Shown here in pieces: positions 6,741-33,151 of a stretch of 33,151 nt of DNA. Position numbers and translations under genes: made by a program. The stretch is from Aliivibrio sp. (GTDB taxonomy: Bacteria > Pseudomonadota > Gammaproteobacteria > Enterobacterales > Vibrionaceae). The notes beneath the pieces were generated by a model that saw only the letters and a list, made by a program, of their open reading frames with translations, searched no databases and was not told the DNA's origin. The stretch spans positions 1 to 33,151 of the forward strand of contig JAAGZR010000541.1 of assembly GCA_024206155.1 (NCBI GenBank). Reading direction: 5' to 3'. Numbering within the stretch: the first letter of the stretch is position 1; each line of letters begins with the position of its first letter.

Positions 6741-6814
6741 CGCACTCTGCAGGAGTTGAACCTGCGACCCTCAACTTAGAAGGTTGGTGCTCTAGCCATC
6801 TGAGCTAAGAGTGC
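6741..6814 (-). tRNA. trnR(ucu): tRNA-Arg(UCU)
   Basis: Cloverleaf gcactct...agagtgc; anticodon loop CTTCTAA. Confidence 0.95.
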
Positions 6815-6826
6815 CGCACTGGGATA

Positions 6827-6907
6827 TGCTCACTACCGGACTTGAACCGGTATCCCAGAAGGAACAGATTTTAAGTCTGTCGTGTATACCATTTCCACCA
6901 AGTGAGC
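6827..6907 (-). tRNA. trnL(uaa): tRNA-Leu(UAA)
   Basis: Cloverleaf with long variable arm; acaga-CTTAAAA-tctgt; GCTCACT/AGTGAGC acceptor. Confidence 0.95.
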
Positions 6908-8081: not shown

Positions 8082-8196
8082 TGTGCACCTATATACTAGA
8101 TAGAGATAAGGTACAGCATATCTATATAAAATACACAGAGATATGTATGTTATATAGAGAGCTCCATATATCCTAATATATGTCAATACGAATGTT

Positions 8197-8270
8197 GAGC
8201 AAGTAACTCAGTAGGTTAGAGTACACGCTTGATAAGCGTGATGTCGGGGGTTCAAGTCCCTTCTTGCTCA
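8197..8270 (+). tRNA. trnI(gau): tRNA-Ile(GAU)
   Basis: cacgc-TTGATAA-gcgtg; GAGCAAG/CTTGCTC acceptor. Confidence 0.95.
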
Positions 8271-8285
8271 GATGTTCTCTAGATT

Positions 8286-12672: not shown

Positions 12673-12746
12673 GAGCGGAGGTAGGACTCGAACCTACAAT
12701 CTTCAGATTATGAGCCTGACGAGACAACCATTTTCTCTTCTCCGCC
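12673..12746 (-). tRNA. trnMf(cau): Initiator tRNA-Met(CAU)
   Basis: CTCGTCAGGCTCATAATCTGAAG resembles bacterial fMet; weak G-U pair at 1:72. Confidence 0.9.
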
Positions 12747-16199: not shown

Positions 16200-16793
16200 A
16201 TGAAAATTCTCATAGATATGCAACATTTTGCAGAAACTCTTCGTCAAGAATGTCCACAATGGATTCAAGAAACAGTATGGAGCCGTGGTGAGCTTACTGT
16301 ACGAGTAGCACCCGAATATATTGTACCTTTTATGACATATCTGCGTGATCATAGTCAAACACAATTTAAATGTTTAATCGATGTAACAGCAGTAGATTAC
16401 CCTGATCGTGATTTACGTTTTCGTATTGTATATCATTTATTAAGTGTAGAATATGCATCACGTATTCGTGTATCAACAGATATTTCTGAAACACAACCAT
16501 TAGCTTCTGTAACACCTATTTTTAGTAGTGCTGGATGGTGGGAACGAGAAGTTTGGGATATGTTTGGTGTATTTTTCCAAGGTCATCCTGATTTACGTCG
16601 TATTTTAACAGACTATGGTTTTCAAGGTCATCCACTTCGTAAAGATTTCCCCCTTACAGGTTATAGCGAAGTTCGTTATTGTGATGCTGAAAAGCGAGTA
16701 ATTTCAGAACCAGTTGAATTAGCACAAGAATTCCGATATTTTGAATATGGAAGTCCTTGGGAAACACTTGGCCCAAAACGTGACCAAGAGTAG
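16200..16793 (+). CDS. nad9: NADH dehydrogenase subunit 9
   Basis: FKCLIDVTAVDYPDRDLRFRIVYHLLSV...WWEREVWDMFGVFFQGHPDLRRILTDYGFQGHPLRKDFPL; start at 16200 or 16218. Confidence 0.97.
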   Translation: MKILIDMQHFAETLRQECPQWIQETVWSRGELTVRVAPEYIVPFMTYLRDHSQTQFKCLIDVTAVDYPDRDLRFRIVYHLLSVEYASRIRVSTDISETQPLASVTPIFSSAGWWEREVWDMFGVFFQGHPDLRRILTDYGFQGHPLRKDFPLTGYSEVRYCDAEKRVISEPVELAQEFRYFEYGSPWETLGPKRDQE

Positions 16794-19589: not shown

Positions 19590-19663
19590 CGTGCCTGGAA
19601 AGATTCGAACTCTCAGCCCTCAGATCCGTAGTCTGATACTCTATCCAATTGAGCCACAAGCAC
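19590..19663 (-). tRNA. trnR(acg): tRNA-Arg(ACG)
   Basis: tcaga-CTACGGA-tctga; GTGCTTG/CAGGCAC acceptor. Confidence 0.95.
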
Positions 19664-20615: not shown

Positions 20616-21311
20616 CTAGACACGTCTATACGTGATGCATAGATATAAAAGTGTGATTTCATACATACCACACAACAGTAAAGTGCACCATAGTTGAAGT
20701 ACTGGTACAGCTGGGCATAGGATACTAGCTAATACTAACGAAGTAATATACCAAACTTTACGATATTGTCTAAATACTTTAATTGGAACAACTAAAATAA
20801 TAAATAATGGAATTAAACTAAAACATACACATAAACTAGGTACTATTACACTCCATAATGTAATTGAAGATAAACGTGGCATATAGTTTATTTCTACACC
20901 CCACACCGCAGTAGCACCCATATTAGTACCTATAAGTATACTATAGATATTAGGCCAAATATATACATGAGAAATTATATAAATAGTAATTGTATATAAA
21001 ATTAAAAAAATTACTTTATAAAAAGTATTGTTATACTCATGTTTATACATGCCAGGACAAATATAGCAGTAATATGTATAACTAGTATAAGGTAAGATGG
21101 CTAAACTAGCAATATAAATACTGATTAAAGCACCAATTCGCATCTCTTCCCCAACATCGATCGTATATAACGTATCTGTTACGTTAGAAATGTATAAATG
21201 AACTAAAGTATATCTATATACCCAAGCTACAATTAGTGAAGTTACTAAAGTAAATAGAATATATAAACATCTATATTTTAATTCACGTACATGAATATAT
21301 AGCGGTGTCAT
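20616..21311 (-). CDS. tatC: Sec-independent protein translocase TatC (MttB)
   Basis: HVRELKYRCLYILFTLVTSLIVAW near the N-terminus and FxxPGMYKHEYN-like segment; several hydrophobic helices. Confidence 0.9.
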   Translation of the reverse strand: MTPLYIHVRELKYRCLYILFTLVTSLIVAWVYRYTLVHLYISNVTDTLYTIDVGEEMRIGALISIYIASLAILPYTSYTYYCYICPGMYKHEYNNTFYKVIFLILYTITIYIISHVYIWPNIYSILIGTNMGATAVWGVEINYMPRLSSITLWSVIVPSLCVCFSLIPLFIILVVPIKVFRQYRKVWYITSLVLASILCPAVPVLQLWCTLLLCGMYEITLLYLCITYRRV

Positions 21312-21370: not shown

Positions 21371-21390
21371 TGCTCTATATGAGAGACATA
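21371..21390 (+). promoter_or_regulatory. Candidate promoter motif TGCTCTATATGAGAGACATA in the tatC/rps4 divergent spacer
   Basis: Near-identical to 14621-14640 and 27207-27229. Confidence 0.45.
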
Positions 21391-21426
21391 ATAAACCTCT
21401 ATTCTTACTTAAGAAATAATAATCTC

Positions 21427-22401
21427 ATGTCAAACCAACATATTACTGATATTCTAAACATTTTGGCTAACTTTTCAATTCATAAAGCTAATAAAAATTT
21501 AAATATCGATCATATTCCAAATAATGCCTGGTCCCCAGATCGTATTGAAGTGTTAGCTAGTATGGATGCATGGACAAATGATATGAGTAATAGAGGATCT
21601 TCGCCTCGTGAAAGTCTTGTAGGGAAAAATTTTGAACATTTACGTCGTTTACGTACAATGTATGGTAACCTACAATACAAAGATATTTTTCATTTAAGTA
21701 AACTGGCTTCAAGTAACAAAGGTTCTTGGGCACATAATTTTATCGCTTTATTAGAAAGACGGTTAGACGTAGTGCTTTGGCGTGCATTATGGGCAAATTC
21801 ACCCAAACAAGCGCGTTCATTAATTAAAAGTGGACATGTTAAAGTTAATGGTAAAGTATGTACACAAAGTAGCTTTTCTGTAAATCCTGGTGATTTTATT
21901 AGTTTAGGTTTAAATGTTCGAAAATTATATCAGCAAAGACTGATTGATAACTGGTCACATATTCCAGTATACCAATTTAATGATGCGCAAACGTCTAATC
22001 AGAATGAAAAAGCTACTTCAGTTCTAGATATTATGGAACGAGCACTCTTTCATGGTAATTTAGTTGATATGTGTAATTTAAATTCCGGGTCACTTGGTTA
22101 TATTAGTTCGACATCATCTAAAGTACGTAGTAATAAACCATTTACTAATATCGAAAAAGCTGCTAAAATTGTACTATATTCAATTAATGATGATGTTAAT
22201 CTAAATAAACATATTTGGGATTGTGTATCACGCGGTGTATCTCTTGACTACTCGGATAAAAATGCATCAATTTTCCCATGCATTATGCCACATATTGAAG
22301 TAAATTATAGTAATATGTCACTTATCTATTTATATACTCCACAAAGAGTATTATGGACAAGTTTAATCGATTTGGAATCACTCCATAATCATTTAGTTTA
22401 A
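21427..22401 (+). CDS. rps4: Ribosomal protein S4
   Basis: S4 RNA-binding domain LLERRLDVVLWRALWANSPKQARSLIKSGHVKVNGKVCTQSSFSVNPGDFISL; start set at the second Met (ORF from 21379 overlaps the promoter-like motif). Confidence 0.93.
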   Translation: MSNQHITDILNILANFSIHKANKNLNIDHIPNNAWSPDRIEVLASMDAWTNDMSNRGSSPRESLVGKNFEHLRRLRTMYGNLQYKDIFHLSKLASSNKGSWAHNFIALLERRLDVVLWRALWANSPKQARSLIKSGHVKVNGKVCTQSSFSVNPGDFISLGLNVRKLYQQRLIDNWSHIPVYQFNDAQTSNQNEKATSVLDIMERALFHGNLVDMCNLNSGSLGYISSTSSKVRSNKPFTNIEKAAKIVLYSINDDVNLNKHIWDCVSRGVSLDYSDKNASIFPCIMPHIEVNYSNMSLIYLYTPQRVLWTSLIDLESLHNHLV

Positions 22402-24950: not shown

Positions 24951-25304
24951 ATGTATACTGTCAATCTTCATATTAGTGGTTATACTGCAGATAGTTTACA
25001 AAGTGCTAGTTTGTGGTTAACTAAATTAGCACAGACATGTAAAGGTCAAAACATTCGTATGTGGCCATTACCAAAACGCCGTCACTTAATTACAGTACTT
25101 CGATCACCACATGTAAATAAAAAGTCTAGAGAACAATTTATTGAAACAACCCGTGGTCGTATGTTTGTAGGACAATATACTCCTGAGTTAACACAAGTTT
25201 TTGTACAATTAGTAGAACAAGCCCATTTACCTGGTGTGGAAGTAACAATGAAGGTATCTCAGCCTACAGTATTTCCCAGTTTATTTTGTATATATATTAA
25301 ATAA
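24951..25304 (+). CDS. rps10: Ribosomal protein S10
   Basis: uS10 motif MWPLPKRRHLITVLRSPHVNKKSREQFIETTRGRMF. Confidence 0.95.
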   Translation: MYTVNLHISGYTADSLQSASLWLTKLAQTCKGQNIRMWPLPKRRHLITVLRSPHVNKKSREQFIETTRGRMFVGQYTPELTQVFVQLVEQAHLPGVEVTMKVSQPTVFPSLFCIYIK

Positions 25305-27790: not shown

Positions 27791-27863
27791 GGCGGAATAG
27801 TTCAATTGGCAGAACATTGGAGTCATAATCCACAGGTTGGGGGTTCAAATCCCTCTTCCGCTA
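27791..27863 (+). tRNA. trnMe(cau): Elongator tRNA-Met(CAU)
   Basis: TTGGAGTCATAATCCACAGGTTGGGGGTTCAAATCCCTC resembles alphaproteobacterial elongator Met rather than tRNA-Ile2. Confidence 0.85.
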
Positions 27864-31563: not shown

Positions 31564-31983
31564 ATGTTACAACCTAAACGTACTCGTTATCGCAAACATC
31601 ATAAACCTTCATCAAAAAGTCCAGTAAGTAATACATCAAAATTGGTATTTGGTGATTTTGGGATCCAAGCAATTCAACCTGGATGTATTTCTGCACGTCA
31701 TCTTGAAGCTGTAAGACGTGTTTGTACACGTTTATGTAAACGTCAAGGTAAGATTTGGTTACGTTTATACCCGGATTGGGTTGTAACGCGCAAATCAGCA
31801 GAATCACGTATGGGTAAAGGAAAAGGGGCTCCTGCTTTTTGGGTTTCACCTGTAGCTGCGGGTGGAATAATTTTAGAAATGAGTGGTATGCCTCTAGAAA
31901 CCGCAAAAGCTGCTGCACGTATGGCAAATTATAAATTACCTATGGCTACTAGATTTGTAACTAGATCAGGCGTTGCTGGATAA
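31564..31983 (+). CDS. rpl16: Ribosomal protein L16
   Basis: PKRTRYRKHHK...FGDFGIQAIQPGCISARHLEAVRR...RMGKGKGAPAFWVSPVAAGGIILEMSG. Confidence 0.98.
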   Translation: MLQPKRTRYRKHHKPSSKSPVSNTSKLVFGDFGIQAIQPGCISARHLEAVRRVCTRLCKRQGKIWLRLYPDWVVTRKSAESRMGKGKGAPAFWVSPVAAGGIILEMSGMPLETAKAAARMANYKLPMATRFVTRSGVAG

Positions 31984-32256: not shown

Positions 32257-32760
32257 ATGAAACATCAAGAATTATCTGCCATGCAAGAGTATATGAATAA
32301 ATGGTCTTATATTATTGTATATCAACACCAAGGTATGAATGTATTAATGTGGCAAAAATTACGTTCAGAACTTGGCGACAATATGGAATGTATGGTAGTC
32401 AAAAATTCACAAGCAAGCCGCGTTTTAAATAATGATAAGTTATGTAGTGGATCTACATGTTTTATTGGTGTATCATCTATGGAAGATATTAAACGTTTGG
32501 AATCAATTACAAAAAAGTATGTTTATTCACTTTTAATTATTGGTGGTTTTTGGGACAATAAATGCTGGACGTACACAGATATTCAACGGGTTTTAAATTT
32601 AAATTCTATTGAAAACGTTTGGGGTGAATTAATTACAACAATGTTAAATAGTGAAACATTTGTTCAATGTTTATCACAGAATAATAATAATTGTCTTAAT
32701 ACTATTGAAACAAATTCAAATACTTTATGTGCTGTGTTAAATAATTATTCACAACAGTAA
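32257..32760 (+). CDS. rpl10: Ribosomal protein L10 (divergent)
   Basis: YIIVYQHQGMNVLMWQKLRSEL...MVVKNSQASRVL...GSTCFIGVSSMEDIKRL matches the mitochondrial Rpl10 pattern; C-terminus Asn-rich and divergent. Confidence 0.8.
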   Translation: MKHQELSAMQEYMNKWSYIIVYQHQGMNVLMWQKLRSELGDNMECMVVKNSQASRVLNNDKLCSGSTCFIGVSSMEDIKRLESITKKYVYSLLIIGGFWDNKCWTYTDIQRVLNLNSIENVWGELITTMLNSETFVQCLSQNNNNCLNTIETNSNTLCAVLNNYSQQ

Positions 32761-32787: not shown

Positions 32788-33151
32788 TCAATCCAACCGC
32801 AGGTTCCCCTACGGTTACCTTGTTACGACTTCACTCCAGTTGTGATATGCGGTCTGGGACCCTATTCCTATACTTACATTAATTCTGTATTTTCAAAATA
32901 TAGGTAAAATATAAATACATCAAGGATACTTCCACTACATACTACTCCCAGAGTGTGACGGGCGGGGAGTACAAGGCTCAGGTACGTATTCACCGTGGCA
33001 TGCTGATCCACGATTACTAGTGATTCCGGCTTCATGGAGTCGAGTTGCAGACACCAATCCGTACTGAGGTGTAATTTAGCGATTGGCTCCGATTTTCATC
33101 ATTGCTACGTTTTGTTTACACCATTGTAACACGTGTGTAGCCCAGTTCATA
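32788..33151 (-). rRNA. rns: Small subunit rRNA, 3' part (33011-33151 duplicates 1-141)
   Basis: Minus strand reads AAGTCGTAACAAGGTAACCGTAGGGGAACCTGCGGTTGGAT, the SSU 3' end. Confidence 0.96.
33011..33151. repeat. 141-bp terminal redundancy identical to 1-141 (circular molecule overlap)
   Basis: cgattactagtgattccggc...cccagttcata present at both window ends; both lie within a single continuous rns. Confidence 0.95.

What the first reader, a model, noticed from the sequence alone, without database searches (positions are those of the whole stretch)
20616..21311. No trnI(cau), and AUA codons nearly absent except in tatC and the rps10 tail
I find only two CAU-anticodon tRNAs: an initiator-like trnMf (12673-12746) and an elongator-like trnMe (27791-27863). 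The lysidine-type trnI(cau) needed to read AUA as Ile is not seen. Stretches of cox1, nad3, atp6, atp9, rps3, rps4, rps7, rpl6 and others that I read by eye use AUU/AUC only. tatC carries at least four in-frame AUA codons (in ...YIISHVYIWPNIYSILIGTNMG...VEINY...), and rps10 has one near its C-terminus. Either AUA is read by an imported tRNA, or it has shifted toward Met. As I recall, a variant plastid code affecting AUA has been reported in Chloropicophyceae; that comparison is from memory.
Basis: partly seen in the sequence, partly recalled or inferred. Interest (0 to 1): 0.75.

Follow-up and report, generated by a model that had tools for sequence, protein, structure and literature searches.

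The report
Orphan AUA codon in algal mitochondrion
This is a complete mitochondrial genome of a green alga that has lost the one tRNA needed to read the codon AUA and has almost stopped using that codon, a situation already described in several green-algal groups, with seven or so leftover AUA codons whose meaning cannot yet be settled.

Summary
The window is a complete circular green-algal mitochondrial genome (33,010 bp after a 141-bp end overlap), present as a stray contig in a proteobacterial MAG. It has 25 tRNA genes and no trnI(cau). Its two CAU tRNAs fall with the initiator-Met and elongator-Met classes of alphaproteobacteria, not with Ile2. In-frame AUA occurs 10 times in 8,225 codons, against 309 and 147 in the other two frames and roughly 280-600 expected. 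The other three (nad9 x1, rps4 x2) sit near uncertain starts. The reading "shifted toward Met" is not supported. AUA is used in neither an Ile pattern nor a Met pattern, and the six alignable codons lean weakly to Ile (rpl16-102 and tatC-141 are Ile/Val columns). Most likely AUA is a near-unassigned codon, purged after loss of its tRNA and tolerated in the weakly constrained tatC. This is a known kind of case: trnI(cau) is absent from Ostreococcus, Pycnococcus and Prasinoderma mtDNA, and AUA is rare in pedinophytes and Scenedesminia. New example; modest interest.

The parts
12673..12746 (-). trnMf(cau), initiator-type tRNA-Met
   Evidence: 69-73% identical to alphaproteobacterial initiator class, core GTCAGGCTCATAA.CTGAAG shared
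27791..27863 (+). trnMe(cau), elongator tRNA-Met
   Evidence: 73-78% identical to alphaproteobacterial elongator class (GGCGG..., G1-U72, GGA.TCATAATCC); 53-63% to most Ile2-type sequences and 62% to E. coli Ile2, two other sequences 71-72%
8196..8271 (+). trnI(gau), the only Ile tRNA, cognate for AUU/AUC
20616..21311 (-). tatC (mttB), 231 aa, five AUA codons
   Evidence: PF00902 E=4.5e-15, residues 7-208; no stops or frameshifts
20976..20978 (-). AUA, tatC codon 112 (Ala column in alphaproteobacteria)
20937..20939 (-). AUA, tatC codon 125 (Phe column)
20931..20933 (-). AUA, tatC codon 127 (Leu column)
20889..20891 (-). AUA, tatC codon 141 (Ile in 24 of 28 homologues)
20844..20846 (-). AUA, tatC codon 156 (Leu column)
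25290..25292 (+). AUA, rps10 codon 114, in the tail beyond the S10 domain
31867..31869 (+). AUA, rpl16 codon 102, Ile/Val column (18 I, 10 V, 1 M of 29)
16212..16214 (+). AUA, nad9 codon 5 if translation starts at 16200 (start uncertain; before the Pfam domain)
21388..21393 (+). two AUA, rps4 codons 4-5 if translation starts at 21379 (start uncertain)

Best explanation
The alga's mitochondrion lost trnI(cau) (shown by its absence from a complete circle). AUA was then driven out of nearly all genes and became a near-unassigned codon: no cognate tRNA is encoded, and the few remaining AUA codons are read slowly by near-cognate tRNAs (inferred). They persist in the least constrained frames and tails, chiefly tatC. 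What they insert is unresolved. Ile, via mitochondrial tRNA-Ile(GAU) or a little imported cytosolic tRNA-Ile(UAU), is somewhat favoured over Met via tRNA-Met(CAU).
For: Complete circle, 25 tRNAs, no trnI(cau) under any setting. The two CAU tRNAs are classed as initiator and elongator Met. AUA is 10 of 8,225 codons, while ATA is common out of frame. Usage fits neither an Ile codon with a working tRNA (P<1e-53) nor a Met codon with one (P about 1e-212). AUA is concentrated in tatC (Fisher P=1.3e-4). rpl16-102 and tatC-141 lie in Ile/Val columns; summed log-odds are +4.0 bits for Ile over Met, reached by 8% of Met-like draws with tatC+rpl16 calibration and 1.7% with cob added. PMC12574857 states the same model for pedinophytes.
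Against: Only six AUA codons can be aligned, and four lie in non-Ile columns (A, F, L, L). The alignments use bacterial homologues because no algal mitochondrial relatives could be fetched. The Ile lean may be chance. An inefficient import of tRNA-Ile(UAU) gives the same pattern. Codon usage is compared with other families of one genome, not with relatives that keep trnI(cau).
Confidence: 0.62

Rival explanations
1. AUA is still Ile, read by a cytosolic tRNA-Ile(UAU) imported into the mitochondrion; the codon is rare because import is recent or weak.
For: Ile lean at rpl16-102 and tatC-141. Eukaryotic cytosol has such a tRNA, and import is discussed as an alternative in PMC12574857 and PMC4558845.
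Against: The encoded set is otherwise nearly complete (only CGG, 6 codons, also lacks an obvious cognate), so no general import need is seen. Efficient import would not leave AUA at 2% of Ile codons.
Confidence: 0.2
2. [quoted passage not shown]
For: Known in Pycnococcus and some pedinophyte mitochondria and proposed for Scenedesminia. The only tRNAs one wobble away are tRNA-Met(CAU) and tRNA-Ile(GAU).
Against: AUG is 318 against AUA 10, although the other A/G pairs counted are 81-93% A. No AUA sits in a Met column; rpl16-102 and tatC-141 are Ile/Val columns. No cox, nad or atp gene (apart from the uncertain nad9 start) uses AUA.
Confidence: 0.13
3. trnI(cau) is present but missed, or one CAU tRNA is really Ile2, and AUA is rare by drift in base composition.
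For: trnI(cau) is easily mistaken for trnM by anticodon alone.
Against: Class comparison, complete circle and permissive scans. ATA is abundant out of frame.
Confidence: 0.03

Closest known systems
Mitochondrial AUA in low-usage pedinophytes (Resultomonas, Marsupiomonas, A. japonica; PMC12574857)
   Same: No trnI(cau); only initiator and/or elongator tRNA-Met(CAU); AUA almost gone (1-4 instances) and its meaning not deducible; authors propose inefficient reading by a near-cognate tRNA.
   Different: Here the gene set is large (33 proteins incl. rpl10, 25 tRNAs), trnR(ucu) and trnL(uaa) are kept; the AUA lean is to Ile rather than Met.
trnI(cau)-lacking prasinophyte mtDNAs: Ostreococcus and Prasinoderma (PMC3873408, Table 2)
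   Same: trnI(cau) absent while trnI(gau), trnMe and trnMf are kept; Prasinoderma described as using the standard code.
   Different: They keep rps8 and rpl14 (Ostreococcus also nad10), missing here; AUA usage was not compared here.
Pycnococcus provasolii mitochondrial code (AUA=Met; Turmel 2010, Noutahi 2019, cited in PMC6821328)
   Same: No trnI(cau).
   Different: AUA there is reported as Met; here AUA is almost absent, UUR is not a stop, and no Met signal is seen.
Chloropicophyceae plastid/mitochondrial tRNA losses and Chloroparvula plastid AUA=Met (Turmel 2019, cited in PMC12574857)
   Same: Loss of trnI(cau) with depleted or altered AUA.
   Different: trnL(uaa) is present here with 602 UUA codons; by my recollection it is lost in that class. 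The reassignment reported there is plastid.

Membership tests
Mitogenome with lost trnI(cau) and depleted AUA (green-algal type) | No trnI(cau) in a complete mitogenome | tested here: met
Mitogenome with lost trnI(cau) and depleted AUA (green-algal type) | AUA strongly depleted in frame, not by base composition | tested here: met
   10 in frame vs 309/147 out of frame
AUA=Met variant code (Pycnococcus/pedinophyte type) | AUA codons at conserved Met columns | tested here: not met
   0 of 6 alignable AUA in a Met column; two in Ile/Val columns; small sample
AUA=Met variant code (Pycnococcus/pedinophyte type) | AUA used as a regular partner of AUG | tested here: not met
   10 AUA vs 318 AUG in a genome preferring A at third positions
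AUA=Met variant code (Pycnococcus/pedinophyte type) | Modified C34 on tRNA-Met(CAU) | not testable with these tools
   needs tRNA mass spectrometry or sequencing
Chloropicophyceae mitogenome | Loss of trnL(uaa) together with trnI(cau) (from memory of an unheld abstract) | tested here: not met
   trnL(uaa) at 6827-6907(-), UUA 602 codons; the criterion itself rests on memory
Viridiplantae (core-chlorophyte-like) mitogenome | Gene repertoire and closest Cox1 | tested here: met
   Cox1 best to 7jro COX1 (plant, by my knowledge) 959 bits vs 777 for the next; ribosomal/tatC gene set equals that of Trebouxia sp. TR9 and rpl10 follows rps19 as in most Trebouxiophyceae (PMC6547736). No tree was made.

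The most novel reading that the evidence does not exclude
A mitochondrion caught between codon loss and codon capture: AUA has no cognate tRNA yet is kept at five internal sites of a working tatC, read as Ile without lysidine by tRNA-Ile(GAU), unlike the Met outcome seen in other green algae.
Probability: 0.2. Interest if true: 0.5.

Novelty: new member of a known kind. Interest (0 to 1): 0.3.

Why it matters
It adds a further genome to the cases in which AUA loses its tRNA in green-algal mitochondria (whether an independent loss is not tested). The seven internal leftover codons are so few that a handful of peptides could show what a near-unassigned codon inserts. It also warns against translating AUA here as Met by analogy.

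Tried and rejected
(1) A missed or disguised trnI(cau): rejected. (2) Base-composition drift: rejected by out-of-frame ATA. (3) A 27-43 mismatch in trnMe as a sign of AUA reading: such mismatches occur in several other tRNAs here too, so it is not distinctive. (4) AUA codons counted at the 5' ends of the raw ORFs of nad5, cox2, nad3 and atp8 and one of two in nad9: upstream of plausible starts (the nad5, cox2, nad3 and nad9 ORFs run back into a tRNA gene), excluded. (6) Plastid or 18S contigs in the same MAG: no psbA family match; the 18S search failed.

Full report
What the window is. The window is a green-algal mitochondrial genome carried as contig C337 of a proteobacterial MAG. Its first 141 bases repeat exactly at its end, and the small-subunit rRNA runs across the junction, so it is a complete circle of 33,010 bp. 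Cox1 is closest to the entry 7jro (a plant enzyme, by my knowledge; 959 bits against 777 for the next). The ribosomal-protein and tatC gene set equals that listed for Trebouxia sp. TR9, and rpl10 (32257-32760, PF00466) follows rps19 as in most Trebouxiophyceae (PMC6547736). nad5-nad4, cox2-cox3 and trnS(gcu)-trnA(ugc) are adjacent as in prasinophytes (PMC3873408). The exact class was not determined, since no algal relatives could be fetched.

No trnI(cau). ARAGORN finds 25 tRNAs and two with CAU. Mitochondrial, intron-allowing and relaxed modes on the rotated circle find no third, nor does a permissive Rfam scan. I collected CAU tRNAs of ten alphaproteobacteria-like genomes plus E. coli ileX and metT/metU. 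They fall into initiator, elongator and Ile2-like classes. The gene at 12673-12746 goes with the initiators (69-73%). The gene at 27791-27863 goes with the elongators (73-78%, sharing GGCGG, G1-U72 and GGA.TCATAATCC), and is 62% identical to E. coli Ile2. Two GGGGGGA-type sequences score 71-72%; their class is not certain, but they lack the elongator core.

AUA is nearly absent. With ORFs trimmed to plausible starts there are 10 AUA in 8,225 codons. ATA occurs 309 and 147 times in the two other frames, and 280-609 in-frame AUA would be expected. If AUA were an ordinary Ile codon it should be near half of AUA+AUU; it is 10 of 449. If it were an ordinary Met codon it should be over 80% of AUR, as A is in the ten other A/G pairs counted; it is 10 of 328. 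So AUA behaves as a codon that the ribosome reads poorly, whatever it inserts. This is the main inference of the report.

The leftovers. tatC has five AUA (codons 112, 125, 127, 141, 156), rps10 one (114, in the tail) and rpl16 one (102). nad9 codon 5 and rps4 codons 4-5 depend on uncertain starts. tatC is enriched (Fisher P=1.3e-4). It is an intact TatC (PF00902, E=4.5e-15) with the lowest GC of the genes apart from rpl10 (0.29), and it keeps recognisable TatC landmarks by eye (HVRELKYR near the N-terminus, PGMYKHE).

What AUA means. Against 28 bacterial TatC and 29 L16 proteins, tatC-141 is Ile in 24 of 28 and rpl16-102 is Ile/Val in 28 of 29; the other four columns are Ala, Phe, Leu, Leu. 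Summed log-odds are +4.0 bits for Ile over Met. Random sets of Met codons from tatC and rpl16 reach this in 8% of draws, 1.7% when cob is added to the calibration. This is a lean, not a result.

Comparison with what is known. Table 2 of PMC3873408 shows trnI(cau) missing from Ostreococcus, Pycnococcus and Prasinoderma mtDNA. PMC12574857 reports pedinophyte mitochondria without trnI(cau), with 1-4 AUA in four species, and proposes reading by a near-cognate tRNA. PMC6821328 reports rare AUA and two CAU tRNAs in Scenedesminia. The key Chloropicophyceae paper (Turmel 2019) is not held; what I say of its trnL(uaa) loss is from memory. The present case is therefore a new example of a known kind. Its one possible twist is the lean to Ile rather than Met.

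Noticed in passing
whole window: UGA is wholly unused: 0 of 33 stops and 0 sense codons (25 UAA, 8 UAG), so it too looks like an orphan codon.
   Followed up: partly
19590-19663, 6741-6814: Only trnR(acg) and trnR(ucu) are present; CGG occurs 6 times with no obvious cognate tRNA.
   Followed up: no
1-141 and 33011-33151: Exact 141-bp end overlap: the contig is a complete circle, an algal mitogenome misbinned in a proteobacterial MAG.
   Followed up: yes
32257-32760: rpl10 ORF downstream of rps19 (PF00466), a gene often left unannotated in green algae (PMC6547736).
   Followed up: yes
whole window: No 5S rRNA match even in the permissive Rfam scan, although Trebouxia mtDNA carries rrn5 (PMC6547736).
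   Followed up: no
21379-22401: rps4 ORF of 340 aa is long; only the S4 domain (127-174) is recognised, with an uncertain start that holds two AUA codons.
   Followed up: no
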